Shown here piece after piece: positions 1 through 6,230 of a stretch of DNA of 64,000 nt (position 1 is its first letter; each line of letters begins with the position of its first letter). The notes under the pieces were generated by a model. It had not been told where the DNA came from, searched no databases, and saw only the letters and a list, made by a program, of their open reading frames with translations. A program made the position numbers and the translations under genes. Source of the DNA: Cloacibacillus sp. An23 (GTDB lineage Bacteria > Synergistota > Synergistia > Synergistales > Synergistaceae); contig NZ_NFJQ01000004.1 in NCBI RefSeq assembly GCF_002159945.1, positions 124,001 to 188,000 on the forward strand, written 5' to 3'.

Positions 1-380
1 TGCGCGCGGAGATAGCGCGAGTGCTATCGCTGCGCGAGGACGAGGTATTCGAGGCGGCGAAGGAGATGCAGGTCCCGGCCGCGCGCCTTTTCGAGCTGCG
101 CGAACTCGGCGGCCTGCCGGTAGTGAACTTCGCGGCCGGCGGCGTCGCGACTCCGGCCGACGCGGCTCTGATGATGACGCTCGGCGCGGAAGGAGTCTTC
201 GTCGGCAGCGGAATCTTCAAATCCGGCGACCCGGCAAAGCGCGCGGCGGCGATAGTCAAGGCCGTGACGAACTACGAAAATCCGGAAATCCTCGCCGAAA
301 TATCAGAAGACCTCGGCGAAGCGATGGTGGGCACGAACGCGGACGAAATAGCTCTGCTCATGGCGGAGCGCGGAAAATGA
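1..380 (+). CDS. pdxS: PdxS, PLP synthase lyase subunit (5' truncated)
   Basis: This is the C-terminal part, about 125 residues, of the PdxS/Pdx1 subunit of pyridoxal 5'-phosphate synthase; the start lies left of the window. PdxS builds PLP from ribose 5-phosphate, glyceraldehyde 3-phosphate and ammonia delivered by PdxT. The visible part contains the family's conserved [18 protein letters not shown] stretch, the [14 protein letters not shown] phosphate-binding loop and the C-terminal EDLGEAMVG segment, ending in LLMAERGK. The reading frame is open to base 3. The stop codon overlaps the pdxT start by 4 bases (ATGA), so the two are cotranscribed and probably translationally coupled. Confidence 0.97.
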
Positions 381-952
381 GCCGTCCGCTCACTGTAGGC
401 GTGCTCGCCGTGCAGGGGGCCTTCGCCGAGCACTGCGCGGCGCTGCGGCGCGCGGGCGCAAAGCCGCGCGAGATACGCGAAGCGCGCTCGCTCGAAGGGC
501 TCGACGCCGTGATACTGCCAGGCGGTGAAAGCACCGCGCAGGGCCGCCTCATGCGCGAGTTCGGCATATTCGAGCCGCTGCGCGCCGCGATAGCGGGCGG
601 CCTGCCCGTCTTCGGAACATGCGCGGGCATGATACTTCTCGCGAAAAACATAGAGAACGACGAACGGCGCCACCTCGCCGTGATGGACATAGCTGTGCGG
701 CGCAACGGCTACGGACGGCAGCTCGCGAGCTTCGTCGCGCGCGGCGCGTTTGCCGGAATGGAAGATGTCGAGATGGTCTTCATCCGCGCGCCATATATCG
801 CCTCGGCGGGGCCGAACGTCGAGATACTCGCCGAAACCGGCGGACGCGCCGTCGCCGCGCGCGAAGGGAACATGCTCGCCGCGGCCTTTCACCCGGAAAT
901 GACGGACGACCCGCGCGTACTCGAATATTTCCTCTCCATGGCGCGCGGATGA
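377..952 (+). CDS. pdxT: PdxT, PLP synthase glutaminase subunit
   Basis: This 191-residue class I glutamine amidotransferase releases ammonia from glutamine and channels it to PdxS in the cytoplasmic PLP synthase complex. The nucleophile is Cys82 in GTCAGM, and the His-Glu pair is H172/E174 in FHPEM. The oxyanion-region motif LPGGEST sits near residues 48-53. The length is normal for the family. It overlaps pdxS by 4 bases. No terminator is visible directly after it. Confidence 0.97.
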
Positions 953-1013
953 AATTCCTCCGGAGTGCTACAATTTAAGGGCATCGCATAAATCTTAAGG
1001 AGGAATGTTCAGC

Positions 1014-1412
1014 ATGGACGAAGTCTACAAGTTTCTGAAGGAGAACCCGATCTTCTTCGTGGCGACGGAAGAGGGCGACCAGCCGCGCGTGAGGCCCTTC
1101 GGCGTCGTTTCGCAGTTCGAGGGCAGGCTCTACCTCCAGACCGGAAACGTCAAGCCGGTATTCAAGCAGATGATGGCGAACCCGAAGATAGAGCTCTGCG
1201 CGATGGGCAAGGACGGCAAGACGTGGCTCCGCGTAGCCGCCGAAGTCGTGCTCGACCCGAGAGTCGAGGCGCGCCGCCAGATGCTCGACGAGAACCCGAT
1301 GCTGCGCAGCCTCTACTCCGAGGACGACGGGATAGGCGAAGTTCTCTGGCTCAAGAACGCGACGGCGACATTCAGCTCGATGGGCGGCGAGCCGCGCGTC
1401 GTGAAGTTCTAG
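1014..1412 (+). CDS. Pyridoxamine 5'-phosphate oxidase family protein
   Basis: This small protein of about 132 residues has the split-barrel FMN-binding fold seen in PNPOx-like proteins. The opening MDEVYKFLKENPIFFVATEEGD and the following RPFGVVSQFEG and LYLQTGNVK segments are typical of the short anaerobe subgroup. An ATG at 1005 is in frame, but the strong AGGAGG at 998-1003 lies almost against it; the ATG at 1014 has proper spacing and is preferred. A TACAAT hexamer at 969-974 could be its -10 element, without a clear -35. The substrate is unknown. Being next to pdxST does not show a role in vitamin B6, because this family often binds FMN, heme or F420 instead. Confidence 0.85.
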   Translation: MDEVYKFLKENPIFFVATEEGDQPRVRPFGVVSQFEGRLYLQTGNVKPVFKQMMANPKIELCAMGKDGKTWLRVAAEVVLDPRVEARRQMLDENPMLRSLYSEDDGIGEVLWLKNATATFSSMGGEPRVVKF

Positions 1413-1436
1413 CGAAATTTACGCAAATACGTAAAA

Positions 1437-1466
1437 AAGGGCGGAAGCGCGAAGCTCCGCCCTTTT
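1437..1466. terminator. Bidirectional Rho-independent terminator
   Basis: A stem with arms GGGCGGA and TCCGCCC is flanked by an A-run on the left and a T-run on the right. It can end both the plus-strand flavin-fold gene and the converging hcp transcript. Confidence 0.8.
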
Positions 1467-1490
1467 TCGCGTATTCCGCGCCGCGCGCGG

Positions 1491-3050
1491 CTAGCCCATG
1501 ATTTTTTTCAAATCTTCGTCGGGCGTTGTGACGGGCGCGACGTTGTAGTTCTCGACGAGGAAGTTCAGCACGTTCGGCGAGACGAAGGCCGGGAGCGACG
1601 GGCCGAGGAGTATGTTCTTTATGCCGAGGTGCAGCAGCGTGAGCAGAATGCAGACGGCCTTCTGCTCGTACCACGAGAGGACGAGCGTCAGCGGCAGGTC
1701 GTTGACTGTGCAGCCGAATGCCTCAGCGAGCGCCGAGGCGACTTTTATCGCGCCGTATGCGTCGTTGCACTGGCCCATGTCCATTATGCGCGGAAAGCCG
1801 CCTATCGTGCCGAGGTCGAGGTCGTTGAAGCGGTATTTGCCGCAGGCGAGAGTCAGCACGATCGTGTCGGCCGGCGTCTTTTTCACGAATTCCGTGTAGT
1901 AGCTGCGCCCCGGCTTCGCGCCGTCGCAGCCGCCGACGAGGAAGAAACGGCGCACCGCACCGCTCTTGACGGCCTCGACTATCTGCGCCGCGTTCGCGAG
2001 CACCGCGCCGTGGCCGAAGCCGGTCGCCGTCTCCGCACCGCCGTTGATTCCCGTGAACTTCCTATCCTCCGCCCAGCCGCCGAGCTCGAGCGCCTTTTCT
2101 ATCACCGGCGTGAAATCCTTGTCCTCGCCGATATGCGCGGCGCCCGGGTACGATACGACCTCGGTCGTGAAAACTCTGTCCGCGTACGACGGCTTAGGCG
2201 GCATCAGGCAGTTCGTCGTGAAGAGCACCGGCGCGGGGATGCCGTCGAATTCCTTCTGCTGGTTCTGCCACGCGGTGCCGAAGTTGCCTTTGAGGTGCGC
2301 GTACTTCCTGAGCTCGGGATAGCCGTGCGCGGGCAGCATCTCGCCGTGAGTGTAGACGTTAACGCCGCGCCCCTCAGTCTGTTCAAGCAGCAGCTTGAGG
2401 TCGCGCAGGTCGTGCCCCGTCACGACGATGAACGGCCCCTTCTCCACCGTGAAGGTCACGCGCGCCGGCTGCGGCGTGCCGAAGCTCTCGGTGTTCGCGC
2501 GGTCGAGCAGCTCCATGCAGCGCAGGTTGATTTCTCCGACCTTCAGCACGAACGGCAGAAGCTCCTCCATCGTGTCAAACTTCGCGAGCGCGGCGAGGCC
2601 GTCGAAGAAGAATCCGTCCACCTCCGCGTCGCGATAGCCGAGCACCGCCGCGTGGTAGGCGTAGGCCGCCGTGCCGCGCAGACCGAAGAGTATCAGCGAC
2701 TTCAGCGAGCGCACGTCCTCGCCGGCCTCCCATATCTTGCGCACGTCATAGGCGGGCGTCCCGCCGCCGAGCTTCGCGCGTTCGGCGCGCACACGCTCCG
2801 CGAGCTCCTTCACCGTCTCGCTGTTGAAATTCACGTTCGTCACCGTCGTGAAAAGCCCTTCGAGCATGAGCCGCGACAGCTCCTCGCGCGCCGCTCCCTT
2901 CGCCGCGAGCGCGAGCGAGATAAGCTCGCCCGTCAGTTCGTCCTGAAGCTCAGCCGTCTCCGCGGGCTTTCCGCAGACCCCCATGCTGCCCGTGCAGCCG
3001 CGGCATCCAGCCGTCTGCTCGCACTGAAAACAAAACATTTTTTTCTCCAT
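1491..3050 (-). CDS. hcp: Hybrid-cluster protein (hydroxylamine reductase)
   Basis: This 519-residue cytoplasmic iron-sulfur protein carries the hybrid 4Fe-2S-2O cluster and a cubane cluster. It reduces hydroxylamine and has been described as an NO reductase in nitrosative stress. The N-terminus shows the cysteine cluster C7, C10, C16, C19 and C26 (CFQCEQTAGCRGCTGSMGVC). Later motifs include VTGHDLRDLK, VFTTEVV and GGCDGAKPGRSYY, matching the family's hybrid-cluster ligands. GGGGAGGAG precedes the ATG. A four-cluster ferredoxin-like protein lies just upstream in the same direction, and a Crp/Fnr regulator diverges beyond it. This is the usual arrangement of Hcp with its redox partner and regulator in anaerobes. 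Confidence 0.96.
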   Translation of the reverse strand: MEKKMFCFQCEQTAGCRGCTGSMGVCGKPAETAELQDELTGELISLALAAKGAAREELSRLMLEGLFTTVTNVNFNSETVKELAERVRAERAKLGGGTPAYDVRKIWEAGEDVRSLKSLILFGLRGTAAYAYHAAVLGYRDAEVDGFFFDGLAALAKFDTMEELLPFVLKVGEINLRCMELLDRANTESFGTPQPARVTFTVEKGPFIVVTGHDLRDLKLLLEQTEGRGVNVYTHGEMLPAHGYPELRKYAHLKGNFGTAWQNQQKEFDGIPAPVLFTTNCLMPPKPSYADRVFTTEVVSYPGAAHIGEDKDFTPVIEKALELGGWAEDRKFTGINGGAETATGFGHGAVLANAAQIVEAVKSGAVRRFFLVGGCDGAKPGRSYYTEFVKKTPADTIVLTLACGKYRFNDLDLGTIGGFPRIMDMGQCNDAYGAIKVASALAEAFGCTVNDLPLTLVLSWYEQKAVCILLTLLHLGIKNILLGPSLPAFVSPNVLNFLVENYNVAPVTTPDEDLKKIMG

Positions 3051-3081
3051 AACAAACTCCTCCCCATCCGCGCTTCCGCGC

Positions 3082-3789
3082 CTAGTCCAGAATCTCCCCG
3101 TCGACCGCTACCGTGACGACGTTCCACGGCAGAAACTTGCCGCTCGCGTTCAGAGCACGCTTCACGGCGTCCTCTATGCCGCCGCAGCACGGGACCTCCA
3201 TGCGCACGACCGTAACGCTCTTTATGTCGTTGTTTTTGATTATCTCCGCGAGCTTCTCCGCGTAGTCCACGCCGTCGAGCTTCGGACAGCCGGCGAGCGT
3301 CACGCGCCCCTTTATGAACCTCTCGTGAAAATCCGCGCGCGCGAAGGCCGTGCAGTCCGCCGCGACGAGCAGCTTCGCTCCGTCGAAATAGGGCGCGCGC
3401 AGCGGCGCGAGCTTTATCTGCACCGGCCACTGCGAAAGACGCGAAACTACGCCGCTCTCGCGCGGTGTGGGAACCTCAGAGGCTTCGCGCCGTATCTCGC
3501 GCGAGAACGTCCCCGGGCATCCGCACGGCAGCTTTCCGCCCGCCGCGCGCTTCGCAGCGACGTTCGCCTCCGCCGCGGCCTTGTCGTAGGGCGCGGCCTC
3601 GCGCTCTACGAAGCGTATCGCGCCCGCCGGGCAGGCCGGCAGGCAGTCGCCCAGCCCGTCGCAGTAGTCGTCGCGCGTGAGCCGCGCCTTTCCGTTTACC
3701 ATAGCTATCGCGCCCTCGTGGCAGGCCTCGGCGCACGCGCCGCAGCCGTTACATTTTTCCTCGTCTATCTCTATTATCCTTCTTTTCAA
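3082..3789 (-). CDS. 4Fe-4S ferredoxin-type partner of Hcp
   Basis: This 235-residue protein starts with a bacterial ferredoxin domain. The first cluster ligands are C13, C16, C19 and C23. The second motif is spaced C43-x5-C49-x3-C53-P, the variant seen in this Hcp-associated family. A long C-terminal half follows, with PCGCPG near residue 110, AADCTAF, LAGCPKLDG and VPCCGG, so further cysteines may hold another cluster. It probably passes electrons to the hybrid-cluster protein encoded 31 bases downstream in the same operon. The 5' leader on the minus strand holds a short hairpin (GCGGCG/CGCCGC, 3806-3822). The function is inferred from motifs and neighbourhood. Confidence 0.88.
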   Translation of the reverse strand: MKRRIIEIDEEKCNGCGACAEACHEGAIAMVNGKARLTRDDYCDGLGDCLPACPAGAIRFVEREAAPYDKAAAEANVAAKRAAGGKLPCGCPGTFSREIRREASEVPTPRESGVVSRLSQWPVQIKLAPLRAPYFDGAKLLVAADCTAFARADFHERFIKGRVTLAGCPKLDGVDYAEKLAEIIKNNDIKSVTVVRMEVPCCGGIEDAVKRALNASGKFLPWNVVTVAVDGEILD

Positions 3790-3919: not shown

Positions 3920-4600
3920 ATGAAAGAATATCTCGGCGTGATAAAAAATTCGCGGCTCTTCCGCGACATAAAGGAGGACGAAATCGAGGCGATGCTCGCG
4001 TGCCTCTCCGTCCGCACGCGCCTCTATGCGAAGAACGAATTCATCCTGCGCGCCGGAGAAAGCGCGCGCGCCATCGGCCTCGTCCTCTCAGGCAAGGTCC
4101 ACATAATCAAGGAAGATTTCCTCGGCAACCGCAACATCATCGCCGAGGCCCGCGCGGGAGACATCTTCGCCGAAAGCTACGCCTGCGTCCCGGATGCGCC
4201 GCTCGAAGTGGGCGCCGCCGCCGCAGAACAGGCCGCGGTGATGTTCATGGACGTCAGCCGCGTCCTCACGGTCTGCGGCTCGGCCTGCGCGTTCCACGCG
4301 CGGCTCATGCGCAACCTGCTCGCCGTGCTCGCCGAGAAAAATCTGAAATTCAGCGAAAAGCTCACCTACATGACCCAGCGCTCCACGCGCATGAAACTCC
4401 TGTCGTACCTCTCCGCCGAATCCGTGCGCCGCGGCGCGCGCGAGTTCGAGATCCCCTTCGACCGCCAGCAGCTCGCCGACTACCTCTCGGTAGACCGCAG
4501 CGCGCTCTCCGGCGAGCTCTCGAAAATGCGCGCCGAAGGTCTGCTCGACTACCGCAAGAACAAATTCATCCTCGCGCCCGGAACGCACGCCGGAGAGTAA
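3920..4600 (+). CDS. Crp/Fnr family transcriptional regulator
   Basis: This 226-residue regulator has an N-terminal cyclic-nucleotide-binding-like beta barrel (about residues 10-120, with AGESARAIGLVLSGKV) and a C-terminal winged helix (about 150-220, with DYLSVDRSALSGELSKMRAEG). The start at 3920 follows GGAGGA at 3911; a much longer frame upstream lacks a site. It is divergent from hcp and its ferredoxin partner, so it most likely controls that stress operon, like HcpR-type members; this is inferred from position. There is no FNR-type N-terminal cysteine cluster. The last 83 bases of homology to a downstream copy (4503-4585) show that the 3' end has been duplicated, and the final residues (THAGE) differ from those of the downstream copy (TGEKS). 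Confidence 0.9.
   Translation: MKEYLGVIKNSRLFRDIKEDEIEAMLACLSVRTRLYAKNEFILRAGESARAIGLVLSGKVHIIKEDFLGNRNIIAEARAGDIFAESYACVPDAPLEVGAAAAEQAAVMFMDVSRVLTVCGSACAFHARLMRNLLAVLAEKNLKFSEKLTYMTQRSTRMKLLSYLSAESVRRGAREFEIPFDRQQLADYLSVDRSALSGELSKMRAEGLLDYRKNKFILAPGTHAGE
4503..4585 (+). repeat. 83-bp direct repeat, left copy (within Crp/Fnr gene)
   Basis: This segment at the 3' end of the Crp/Fnr gene matches 5330-5412 base for base except for one mismatch (C at 4510, A at 5337). The offset between copies is 827 bases. Similarity stops abruptly after 4585. Confidence 0.95.
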
Positions 4601-4692
4601 ACGTCCGCACCTGCGGCGTCATAAAAATAAAAAATATGGAGCGCGTATCAAAGAGCGTTATATAATTATCGAAAAAGGAGATGAATGCGGCA

Positions 4693-4992
4693 ATGTCAGA
4701 AAGACTGTCTCCGGAACAAATATCGGCGCGGCTTGCGCCGGTTTTTGAAAAACACGGCGTACGCAAGGCCGTACTCTTCGGTTCTTACGCAAAAGGTACG
4801 GCTACGGAGAAGAGCGACGTAGACATATTCGTCGACAGCGGACTGCGCGGACTGAAATTCACCGGGTTCCTGTACGACGTAGAGCAGGCCGCCGGAGTAA
4901 GGACGGACGTTTTAGACGCCGCGGACATAACATCCGGCTCCGCCGTCGAAAAAGAGATACGACGTACGGGCATCATCATCTATGCGAAATAA
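4693..4992 (+). CDS. mntA: MntA-type nucleotidyltransferase antitoxin
   Basis: This protein of about 99 residues has a minimal nucleotidyltransferase fold. The signature is visible as G30-S31 followed by D42 and D44 (LFGSYAKG ... SDVDIFV). In characterised MntA/HepT pairs this enzyme adds AMP groups to a tyrosine of HepT and so neutralises it. Two in-frame ATGs exist; the one at 4693 is preferred because AAGGAG at 4675-4680 abuts the ATG at 4681. A TATAAT hexamer lies at 4661-4666 without a clear -35. The toxin start overlaps this gene by 11 bases. The pair is visibly less GC-rich than the flanking genes, which together with the flanking 83-bp repeats suggests it was acquired. Confidence 0.9.
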   Translation: MSERLSPEQISARLAPVFEKHGVRKAVLFGSYAKGTATEKSDVDIFVDSGLRGLKFTGFLYDVEQAAGVRTDVLDAADITSGSAVEKEIRRTGIIIYAK

Positions 4993-5308
4993 AATAATCA
5001 TAGAGAAAATAGTCCGTCATGCGGACAGAATACTGGCTTACTGCCGCGGCGTAAGTTACGAAAAATTCTCGGCAGACGCCATGCTCAGTGACGCGTGCGT
5101 TTTCAACCTCGGACAGATAGGCGAGCTGGCGAACCAGCTTGACGATGATTTTACCCGTTCGCACCAGGAAATACCGTGGCGCAGCCTTTACGGCCTGCGC
5201 AACCGCATCGTCCACGACTACGACGGAGTCAACATGAACCTGATATGGACGATAATCGCCGAAGACCTGAAGCCGCTGCGCGACAACCTCAGTAAAATTC
5301 CTGAATAA
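4982..5308 (+). CDS. hepT: HepT-type HEPN toxin
   Basis: This 108-residue alpha-helical HEPN-domain protein is the likely toxin of the pair. It has the full R-x4-H-x-Y motif: R73, H78 and Y80 in LRNRIVHDYDG. In known HepT proteins the Arg and His form an RNase active site and the Tyr receives AMP groups from MntA. All the key residues are present, so the module looks intact. The start overlaps the antitoxin stop by 11 bases, so translation is coupled. The frame ends 21 bases before the right copy of the 83-bp repeat. Its target RNA cannot be inferred. Confidence 0.9.
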   Translation: MRNKIIIEKIVRHADRILAYCRGVSYEKFSADAMLSDACVFNLGQIGELANQLDDDFTRSHQEIPWRSLYGLRNRIVHDYDGVNMNLIWTIIAEDLKPLRDNLSKIPE

Positions 5309-5329
5309 TCCCACAGACACACAAATGCC

Positions 5330-5412
5330 CGCTCTCAGGCGAGCTCTCGAAAATGCGCGCCGAAGGTCTGCTCGACTACCGCAAGAACAAATTCATCCTC
5401 GCGCCCGGAACG
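5330..5412 (+). repeat. 83-bp direct repeat, right copy
   Basis: This is the second copy of 4503-4585, with one mismatch. It lies in plain order after the toxin gene and before the HD-domain gene, so the 744 bases 4586-5329 sit between two copies of the Crp/Fnr gene's 3' end. Confidence 0.95.
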
Positions 5413-5427
5413 GGAGAAAAAAGCTGA
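5330..5427 (+). pseudogene. Detached 3' fragment of the Crp/Fnr gene
   Basis: In the frame of the regulator this fragment encodes the last part of the winged helix (GELSKMRAEGLLDYRKNKF) and continues to its own stop at 5425-5427 with the tail APGTGEKS. It has no start codon in frame and cannot make a protein. It is probably the original end of the regulator gene, displaced when the toxin-antitoxin segment entered. The reverse, that this copy came in with the insertion, cannot be excluded. Confidence 0.85.
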
Positions 5428-5471
5428 AACCTCCGTGCGGTTGTATAATCTCATCGGACGGAGGTAAGGTA

Positions 5472-6230
5472 ATGTATTCGACCGAAAAGACAGAGGAATG
5501 GTTCAGCGTGTACGTCGACTCCTTCCGCGTGGACGGCGCGCTCGAAAATATGCAAGAGCTGAAAAGAAAGCACAGTTGGCGCGTCTGCGGAATCGCCTGC
5601 GCGATAGCCGAGTCGCTCGAATGGAACGAGCCGCGCGACAGATGGCTCGCCCACGCGATAGGGCTGCTGCACGACACGGCGCGCTTCGAACAGTACCGCG
5701 ACTACAAGACATTCGCGGACGCCGCGAGCTTCGACCACGGCGACCGCGGCGCGGAAATTTTGGCACGTGAGTTCGACTGGGAGGACGTGGAGGACGGCGA
5801 CAGGGAAAAGCTGCTCGCGGCGGTGCGCTTCCACAACAAGATAGAAATACCGCCGAAAACACCGCTGGCGCAGTACCGCTGGTGCGCGCTCGCGCGCGAC
5901 GCCGACAAGATAGACGTGTTCCGCATGGTACAGAGCCGCATAGACAACGGCACGATATACGACATGCTGCCGCGCCACAAAAAAGTCACGGGCCTCTCCC
6001 CCGCGCTCGTGGAAGAAGTCCGCGCCACGGGCCGCGGCTCCTACAAAAACGCGCGCTCGCTCCAGGACTACCGCCTGATCCAGCTCACGTGGGGCCTCGA
6101 CCTCAACTTCCCCGTCTCCGCAGCGACGCTGCGCGAAGAGGGAATTTTCGCGCGCATCGCCGAGGATTTAGAGAAATACGAAATAAAAGACCTGACGGGC
6201 GAAATAATCAAGAAAATATACAATATGTAA
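5472..6230 (+). CDS. HD-domain phosphohydrolase
   Basis: This 252-residue protein has an HD-superfamily metal-dependent hydrolase domain. Visible ligands are H34 (KRKHSWRV) and the H67-D68 doublet (GLLHDTARFEQY), with FDHGDRG and ARDADKIDVFR further on. The family cleaves phosphate esters of nucleotides; the substrate is not evident. The start at 5472 follows GGAGG at 5459-5463. A perfect TATAAT at 5444-5449 lies just after the Crp/Fnr fragment, so transcription may start there, though no -35 is clear. Base composition matches the bulk of the window, unlike the toxin-antitoxin pair before it. A long hairpin follows the gene. Confidence 0.85.
   Translation: MYSTEKTEEWFSVYVDSFRVDGALENMQELKRKHSWRVCGIACAIAESLEWNEPRDRWLAHAIGLLHDTARFEQYRDYKTFADAASFDHGDRGAEILAREFDWEDVEDGDREKLLAAVRFHNKIEIPPKTPLAQYRWCALARDADKIDVFRMVQSRIDNGTIYDMLPRHKKVTGLSPALVEEVRATGRGSYKNARSLQDYRLIQLTWGLDLNFPVSAATLREEGIFARIAEDLEKYEIKDLTGEIIKKIYNM

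What the first reader, a model, noticed from the sequence alone, without database searches (positions are those of the whole stretch)
4503..5412. A toxin-antitoxin module sits between two copies of the Crp/Fnr gene's 3' end
Bases 4503-4585 and 5330-5412 are 83-bp direct repeats with one mismatch, exactly 827 bases apart. Between them is only the MntA/HepT pair. The left copy completes the regulator gene with a new tail (THAGE); the right copy is a headless fragment with another tail (TGEKS). This is what results if an 827-bp circle or segment carrying its own copy of the gene end integrates by recombination in that end and rebuilds it, as some genomic islands do in tRNA genes. There is no integrase, so the route would be homologous recombination or a lost or trans-acting enzyme. 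The insert also looks less GC-rich than its surroundings.
Basis: partly seen in the sequence, partly recalled or inferred. Interest (0 to 1): 0.8.

Follow-up and report, generated by a model that had tools for sequence, protein, structure and literature searches.

The report
Toxin-antitoxin pair inserted with target duplication
A two-gene toxin-antitoxin unit has inserted into the end of a regulator gene and left an 83-base copy of the target on each side, a rare kind of insertion known for restriction-modification genes and seen here again around the same kind of toxin-antitoxin pair in several related bacteria.

Summary
In detail: 4503-4585 and 5330-5412 are 83-bp direct repeats (1 mismatch, spacing 827) and only an MntA/HepT pair lies between them. 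It is a recent insertion: in two relatives crp is followed directly by the HD gene, and the right copy keeps that spacing (44 bp; 43 bp in one relative). But the repeat is most likely a duplicated target, not a gene end carried in by a circle. Of 88 HepT-type loci fetched from the phylum (81 usable), five, this one included, have the pair between clean 31-83-bp repeats, each from a different host gene boundary, with an intact copy of the neighbouring gene or genes kept. A second event also has empty sites in two relatives. This matches "insertion with long target duplication", described for restriction-modification genes; here the cargo is a toxin-antitoxin pair. Ku was found in 0 of 183 genomes searched, so classical end joining is unlikely; I favour template-switch repair (inferred). 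Enrichment over other loci is modest: 5 of 81 against 1 of 118 (p = 0.04), but p = 0.12 against the 41 non-toxin loci alone, and the classes were set after looking.

The parts
3920..4600 (+). crp/fnr-type regulator gene, intact; its last part is the left repeat copy and a new tail THAGE
   Evidence: PF00027 and PF13545; tail read
4503..4585 (+). left copy of the duplicated target (83 bp; 4500-4585 with a second mismatch)
4586..5329 (+). inserted unique segment, 744 bp, GC 51.6% against 58.5% in the flanks
   Evidence: absent between crp and HD in G009 and G026
4681..4992 (+). mntA, nucleotidyltransferase antitoxin with motif GSYAKGTATEKSDVD
   Evidence: PF01909, PF18765; NCBIfam MntA model matched below its cut-off, 38.5 of 60 bits; motif
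4982..5308 (+). hepT, HEPN ribonuclease toxin with motif RNRIVHDY
   Evidence: PF01934; NCBIfam HepT model matched below its cut-off, 38.9 of 60 bits; motif
5330..5412 (+). right copy of the duplicated target, headless crp end
5413..5427 (+). tail of the right copy (GEKS-stop), by its context the original crp end
   Evidence: 44 bp to the HD start against 43 bp in G026
5442..5449 (+). TGTATAAT element upstream of HD, present at the corresponding place in relatives
5472..6230 (+). HD-domain gene, the ancestral downstream neighbour of crp in G009 and G026
   Evidence: PF01966

Best explanation
A bare MntA/HepT operon of about 0.74 kb, without transposase, integrase or visible terminal repeats, inserted recently into the 3' end of the crp/fnr gene, and 83 bp of the target were duplicated in the act (insertion with long target duplication). 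The left copy keeps crp complete with a chance new tail; the right copy stays joined to the ancestral HD promoter. Shown: the repeats, empty sites, and four similar events at unrelated genes in the phylum. Inferred: that the duplication comes from the target, by replicative template switching (the fork copies the crp end, switches to incoming DNA, copies the operon, then resumes about 83 bp behind its exit point) or by gap-filling of a staggered break. As no Ku was found, I prefer template switching (about 50%, against about 20% for gap-filled break capture). The pair then persists as an addiction module; one crossover between the copies would delete 827 bp and restore the original gene (inference).
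For: Repeat of 83 bp, 1 mismatch. Empty site in G009 and G026; the right copy keeps the spacing to HD, 44 bp against 43 bp in G026 (23 bp in G009). Both copies are closer to each other (1 of 51 differ) than to the sister species (5 of 51). Five of 81 usable HepT loci have the pair between clean repeats of 31-83 bp that copy five different host boundaries. In G079 the 65-bp perfect repeat holds the overlapping dppC stop and dppD start, so both genes stay whole. For G183 the relatives G184 and G180 have the empty site. Non-toxin loci: 0 of 22 HD and 0 of 19 Crp. Ku: 0 of 183 genomes.
Against: 76 of 81 usable HepT loci have no clean repeat. Enrichment is modest: p = 0.042 against all 118 other loci, 0.12 against the 41 non-toxin loci alone, 0.055 with doubtful cases, and the classes were set after looking. 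Empty sites were shown for two of the five events only. A shared 6-mer in 4 of 5 duplicated segments (18 of 2,000 random draws reach that) could point to a sequence-specific enzyme. In the 86-bp frame both mismatches lie in the first 11 bp, which would also fit element-derived sequence at one edge. No donor molecule was found, and no step of the insertion was observed.
Confidence: 0.73

Rival explanations
1. One reading: an 827-bp circle or segment that carries its own copy of the crp 3' end integrated into that end by homologous recombination, or by a recombinase acting in trans, as islands do at tRNA genes.
For: The anatomy of this one locus fits: gene rebuilt on the left, headless end on the right. 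Both edge mismatches (positions 3 and 11 of 86) could be element sequence. A 6-mer is shared by 4 of 5 duplicated segments.
Against: Four other events copy four unrelated boundaries, among them a gene start and a stop/start overlap. The second copy is this species' own sequence. No integrase lies between the copies. The 26-base core of the repeat was not found in viral contigs.
Confidence: 0.12
2. The 83-bp crp end was tandemly duplicated first by slippage, and the pair was later inserted at or between the copies by another route.
For: Partial tandem duplications do occur near such pairs, for example L103 and L209, where the pair itself is partly duplicated.
Against: It needs two independent events at the same place, five times over. 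None of the eight relatives' regions that I read shows a duplication without the pair.
Confidence: 0.07
3. Remnant of a larger integrative element that lost its integrase and kept only the toxin-antitoxin pair between its att sites.
For: Islands often carry toxin-antitoxin pairs and end in direct repeats at gene ends (established knowledge).
Against: The five inserts are 674-1,199 bp with no other mobile-element gene noticed; independent decay to the same minimal unit five times is unlikely. The targets include a gene start and overlapping genes.
Confidence: 0.05
4. Assembly artefact or mixture of strains.
For: The window's genome is a draft of 31 contigs; the sister draft's contig ends inside the repeat.
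Against: The locus lies inside a 266-kb contig; the copies differ at 1-2 bases and have different tails; the same pattern recurs in other assemblies.
Confidence: 0.03

Closest known systems
Insertion with long target duplication of restriction-modification genes (Nobusato et al. 2000, Gene 259:99; Furuta et al. 2010, NAR 38:2428; both unread, known here only from passages in PMC3874152, PMC1643837, PMC3031569, PMC3154945)
   Same: An addiction-type gene unit, no linked mobile element, flanked by long (order of 100 bp), variable direct repeats that copy the target.
   Different: Cargo is a toxin-antitoxin pair, not restriction-modification genes; the unit is below 1.3 kb; seen here in another phylum.
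MntA/HepT (HEPN/MNT, type VII) toxin-antitoxin system (PMC7641770, passages read)
   Same: Pfam families, gene pairing and both signature motifs.
   Different: Scores below the NCBIfam equivalog cut-offs; gene order here is mntA then hepT; activity untested.
Recent MNT-HEPN insertions in Deinococcus radiodurans and in the lysine operon of Thermus thermophilus HB8 (Makarova et al. 2009, PMC2701414, passages read)
   Same: The same kind of pair recently inserted in or between host genes, absent from a close relative.
   Different: In the passages seen no flanking repeats are mentioned (the term 'direct repeat' occurs 0 times in the main text); whether those sites carry duplications was not checked.
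Integrative islands at gene 3' ends (tRNA-gene type; from recall)
   Same: Gene end duplicated, one intact gene kept.
   Different: No integrase between the copies, insert of 744 bp, and the other events use unrelated targets including gene starts.

Membership tests
Insertion with long target duplication | Insert absent from relatives at the same site | tested here: met
   G009 and G026 for this locus; G184 and G180 for the G183 event; not tested for the other three events
Insertion with long target duplication | Long and variable direct repeats at the ends of the insert | tested here: met
   83, 65, 61, 65 and 31 bp
Insertion with long target duplication | Repeat is target sequence that is single in the empty site | tested here: met
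   one crp end in the relatives read, at about 60-86% similarity, not in the same species
Insertion with long target duplication | No transposase or terminal inverted repeats | tested here: met
   ORFs and 30-base insert ends inspected by eye
Insertion with long target duplication | Restriction-modification cargo, as in the described cases | tested here: not met
   cargo is MntA/HepT; hence filed as a variant
MntA/HepT toxin-antitoxin | Adjacent PF01909 and PF01934 genes | tested here: met
MntA/HepT toxin-antitoxin | GSX10DXD in the antitoxin and RX4HXY in the toxin | tested here: met
   motifs as given in PMC7641770
MntA/HepT toxin-antitoxin | NCBIfam equivalog cut-offs | tested here: not met
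   38.5 and 38.9 bits against a cut-off of 60: homologous pair, equivalog level not reached
MntA/HepT toxin-antitoxin | Toxicity and AMP transfer to HepT | not testable with these tools
   needs a bench test
Island integrated by a site-specific recombinase at a gene 3' end | Integrase gene in the element | tested here: not met
   none between the copies; elsewhere in the genome not searched
Island integrated by a site-specific recombinase at a gene 3' end | Same att core in independent integrations | tested here: inconclusive
   five targets are unrelated genes; the 6-mer GCTCGA is in 4 of 5, reached by 18 of 2,000 random draws, absent from the 31-bp case

The most novel reading that the evidence does not exclude
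Bare addiction modules (restriction-modification and toxin-antitoxin alike) share one transposase-free route of movement: a Ku-independent, replication-linked insertion that duplicates some 30-90 bp of target. Because the duplication leaves the genes on both sides intact, it lets a sub-kilobase pair land at gene boundaries, even between overlapping operon genes, and this may be a major way in which MntA/HepT pairs spread.
Probability: 0.25. Interest if true: 0.8.

Novelty: new variant of a known kind. Interest (0 to 1): 0.55.

Why it matters
How small toxin-antitoxin pairs move without a mobile element is an old open question. Five sites in one phylum with the same scar, two of them with empty sites in relatives, give a concrete, countable signature. 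It points to insertion with target duplication rather than carriage by an island, links toxin-antitoxin pairs to a mode of movement known for restriction-modification genes, and can be tested in a laboratory strain.

Tried and rejected
Tried without result: megablast of 3.5 kb around the locus against plasmids (no match); exact 26-base repeat pattern in viral contigs (0 matches); HepT in viral contigs (1 relative, L086, no enclosing repeat); HepT in genome contigs (10 relatives, 58% identity at best; L082 has a 38-bp terminator-like repeat around the pair, L074 a weak 38-bp match at spacing 2,084, the other 8 nothing); PADLOC (only candidate-system models matched, by the antitoxin alone); sigma-70 scan (no plus-strand site called upstream of mntA).

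Considered and rejected: the slot between crp and HD as a hotspot for such insertions. G015, G020 and G028 do have an unrelated minus-strand gene there, but without flanking repeats.

Loci with an enclosing repeat of score 24 or more that I did not count as clean. HepT (6 of 11): L103 and L209 (the pair itself partly duplicated), L099 (dispersed repeats), L112 (phzF-like fragment, spacing 1,945), L115 (43 bp, 5 mismatches, noncoding) and L198 (52 bp, 5 mismatches, repeat-rich noncoding). ParE (4 of 5): L140 (dispersed), L148 (38 bp, score 26), L155 (24 bp), L225 (terminator-like). PIN (1 of 1): L236 (59 bp, 3 mismatches, seems to copy the pair's own upstream region). Counted as the one clean ParE case: L218, 27 bp perfect. 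For the doubtful-case test I took 7 HepT (five clean plus L115, L198) and 3 others (L218, L225, L236). Set aside for short flanks: 7 of 88 HepT, 3 of 50 ParE, 3 of 25 HD, 1 of 20 Crp. Thirteen further matches listed, weak or at contig ends for the most part, were not fetched; for ParE and PIN only 50 and 30 of many listed matches were taken. Not all HepT-type hits were checked for an adjacent antitoxin.

Literature: searches (capped lists) showed me no paper on toxin-antitoxin pairs inserted with long target duplication. PMC2654758 cites the restriction-modification case as a parallel to toxin-antitoxin systems (passage). PMC4615327, PMC2614495 and PMC3120642 were searched for the term and gave nothing to the point.

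Full report
Observation. No other direct-repeat pair in the 64-kb window reaches score 30 at spacings of 250-3,500 with my scorer. Between the copies lie mntA (4681-4992; PF01909, PF18765) and hepT (4982-5308; PF01934). Both signature motifs given by PMC7641770 (passages read) are intact: GSYAKGTATEKSDVD and RNRIVHDY. Both proteins stay below the NCBIfam equivalog cut-offs. GC of the insert is 51.6%, of the flanks 58.5%.

Is it an insertion? A match to the regulator (E 0.001 or better, many distant) was found in 19 of 60 genomes, the own one included. In G009 and G026 the HD gene follows crp directly, with one crp end. The right copy in the window keeps that arrangement: 44 bp from its stop codon to the HD start, against 43 bp in G026 and 23 bp in G009, with the TGTATAAT element upstream of HD in common. 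So the right copy carries the ancestral downstream end and the left copy the gene body. G015, G020 and G028 have an unrelated minus-strand gene in the slot and no flanking repeats. In G010 crp has another neighbour, and the G021 region shows HD without crp. The contig of the sister species G001 stops inside the repeat, and no HD or HepT gene was found in that draft (87% complete), so it does not decide.

Whose sequence is the second copy? Over the 51 positions that can be compared with G001, each copy differs from G001 at 5 sites, while the two copies differ from each other at 1. Both thus look like this species' own sequence, and the event is recent. A donor gene end from another species is unlikely.

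Is it alone? I fetched HepT-type loci across the phylum and looked for direct repeats that enclose the toxin gene. Of 88 loci, 81 had enough flank; 11 had an enclosing repeat of score 24 or more at spacings of 400-2,300. Five are clean: two copies, more than 97% identity, host gene boundary. They are this window (83 bp); G079 (65 bp, perfect), where the repeat holds the stop of an oppC/dppC-type permease gene and the start of the ABC ATPase gene, which overlap as ATGA, so that both genes stay whole; G096 (61 bp, 3' end of a Cys/Met-metabolism PLP-enzyme gene; the insert carries one extra small gene); G049 (65 bp, ribosome site and start of a GYF_2/AIM24 gene); and G183 (31 bp, perfect, 3' end of a gene for a small protein of at most 89 residues, membrane-like by its sequence; not searched against a library). 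In all five the pair points the same way as the gene whose boundary is duplicated. For G183, relatives G184 and G180 have the empty site: 77 and 84 bp between the conserved flanks where G183 has 874 and 882 bp; a terminator-like hairpin follows the right copy, as it follows the gene in the two relatives. The other six of the 11 are two diverged noncoding repeats (L115, L198), two partial duplications of the pair itself (L103, L209), one dispersed-repeat region (L099) and one phzF-like fragment at spacing 1,945 (L112). Outside the phylum, in Clostridiales L082, a 38-bp terminator-like repeat flanks a pair whose hepT looks frameshifted; the other 9 genome-contig relatives show nothing like it.

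Controls. The same scan gave 0 of 22 usable HD loci, 0 of 19 Crp loci, 1 clean of 47 ParE loci (L218: 27-bp perfect copies of the ribosome site and start of a threonine-synthase-like gene, name from recall) and 0 clean of 30 PIN loci (L236 ambiguous). Fisher: 5/81 against 1/118, p = 0.042; against the 41 non-toxin loci alone, p = 0.12; with doubtful cases, 7/81 against 3/118, p = 0.055. The classes were set after looking, so the enrichment is suggestive only. The weight lies on the anatomy of the single events. The ParE case also means that the scar may not be special to MntA/HepT.

How it works. The unit is a bare operon: 674-1,199 bp unique, no integrase and no inverted ends seen by eye. Ku was found in 0 of 183 genomes of the phylum, while the control rang in Bacillus subtilis, so classical non-homologous end joining is unlikely. 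I therefore favour replicative template switching that resumes a few dozen bases behind its exit point; fill-in of a staggered break is the alternative. Both are inferred; the donor is unknown, so junction microhomology cannot be read. A shared 6-mer (GCTCGA, either strand, in 4 of 5 duplicated segments; 18 of 2,000 random draws from the same loci reach that) is an unexplained hint of sequence preference and is absent from the 31-bp case. Recombination between the copies would remove 827 bp and restore crp, so the insertion should be reversible; the addiction property of the pair may select against that (inference).

Comparison with what is known. Insertion with long target duplication was named for restriction-modification genes in Helicobacter pylori (Nobusato 2000, not read). 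PMC3874152 (passages read) states that some R-M systems can insert with long and variable target duplications in the order of 100 bp; PMC1643837 shows the H. pylori case (passages); PMC3031569 and PMC3154945 mention it (passages). PMC3031569 suggests that its conclusions on R-M mobility could hold for toxin-antitoxin systems, and PMC2654758 draws the same parallel (passages). Makarova 2009 (PMC2701414, passages) reported recent insertions of MNT-HEPN pairs, including one inside an operon of T. thermophilus HB8; the term 'direct repeat' does not occur in its main text. I saw no report of toxin-antitoxin pairs with this scar in searches (capped lists of an open-access library), and the two key papers were not read. 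I file it as a variant of a known kind: same form, other cargo.

Noticed in passing
L053 2777-3061, L054 3439-3792 and 4065-4370, L055 3314-3655, L060 3494-4000 (oriented as): A small hydrophilic minus-strand gene (MAVKND...HTGPYDEKF type) sits between crp and HD in G015, G020 and G028 (a second similar one in G020) and upstream of HD in G021; it has no flanking repeats.
   Followed up: partly
L218 1785-1811 and 2250-2276: A ParE-type pair lies between 27-bp perfect copies of the ribosome site and start of a threonine-synthase-like gene; the reading frame before the toxin begins at the start codon in the left copy.
   Followed up: partly
L082 868-905 and 1618-1655: In a Clostridiales genome a duplicated terminator-like palindrome (38 bp, 1 mismatch) flanks mntA-hepT, and hepT looks frameshifted.
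   Followed up: partly
L103 1153-1311; L209 (reverse strand) 1885-2006 and 2407-2528: Toxin-antitoxin pairs with part of the pair duplicated in tandem.
   Followed up: no
L112 1481-1628 and 3426-3572: A headless 3' fragment of a phzF-like gene, then a MntA/HepT pair, then the full phzF-like gene, spacing 1,945.
   Followed up: no
L236 1180-1238 and 1906-1964: A PIN-type toxin gene in G150 lies between 59-bp copies (3 mismatches) of a hairpin plus ribosome-site region.
   Followed up: no
phylum sample of 183 genomes: No Ku gene was found in any of the 183 genomes, with a positive control in Bacillus subtilis.
   Followed up: no
G000 contig C4 188600-188977, about 600 bp past the window end: A PIN-domain gene, perhaps another toxin, lies just beyond the window.
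   Followed up: no
window 4503-4585, and the duplicated segments in L106, L110, L121, L119: The 6-mer GCTCGA (either strand) occurs in 4 of the 5 duplicated segments; 18 of 2,000 random draws from the same loci reach that. Unexplained.
   Followed up: partly
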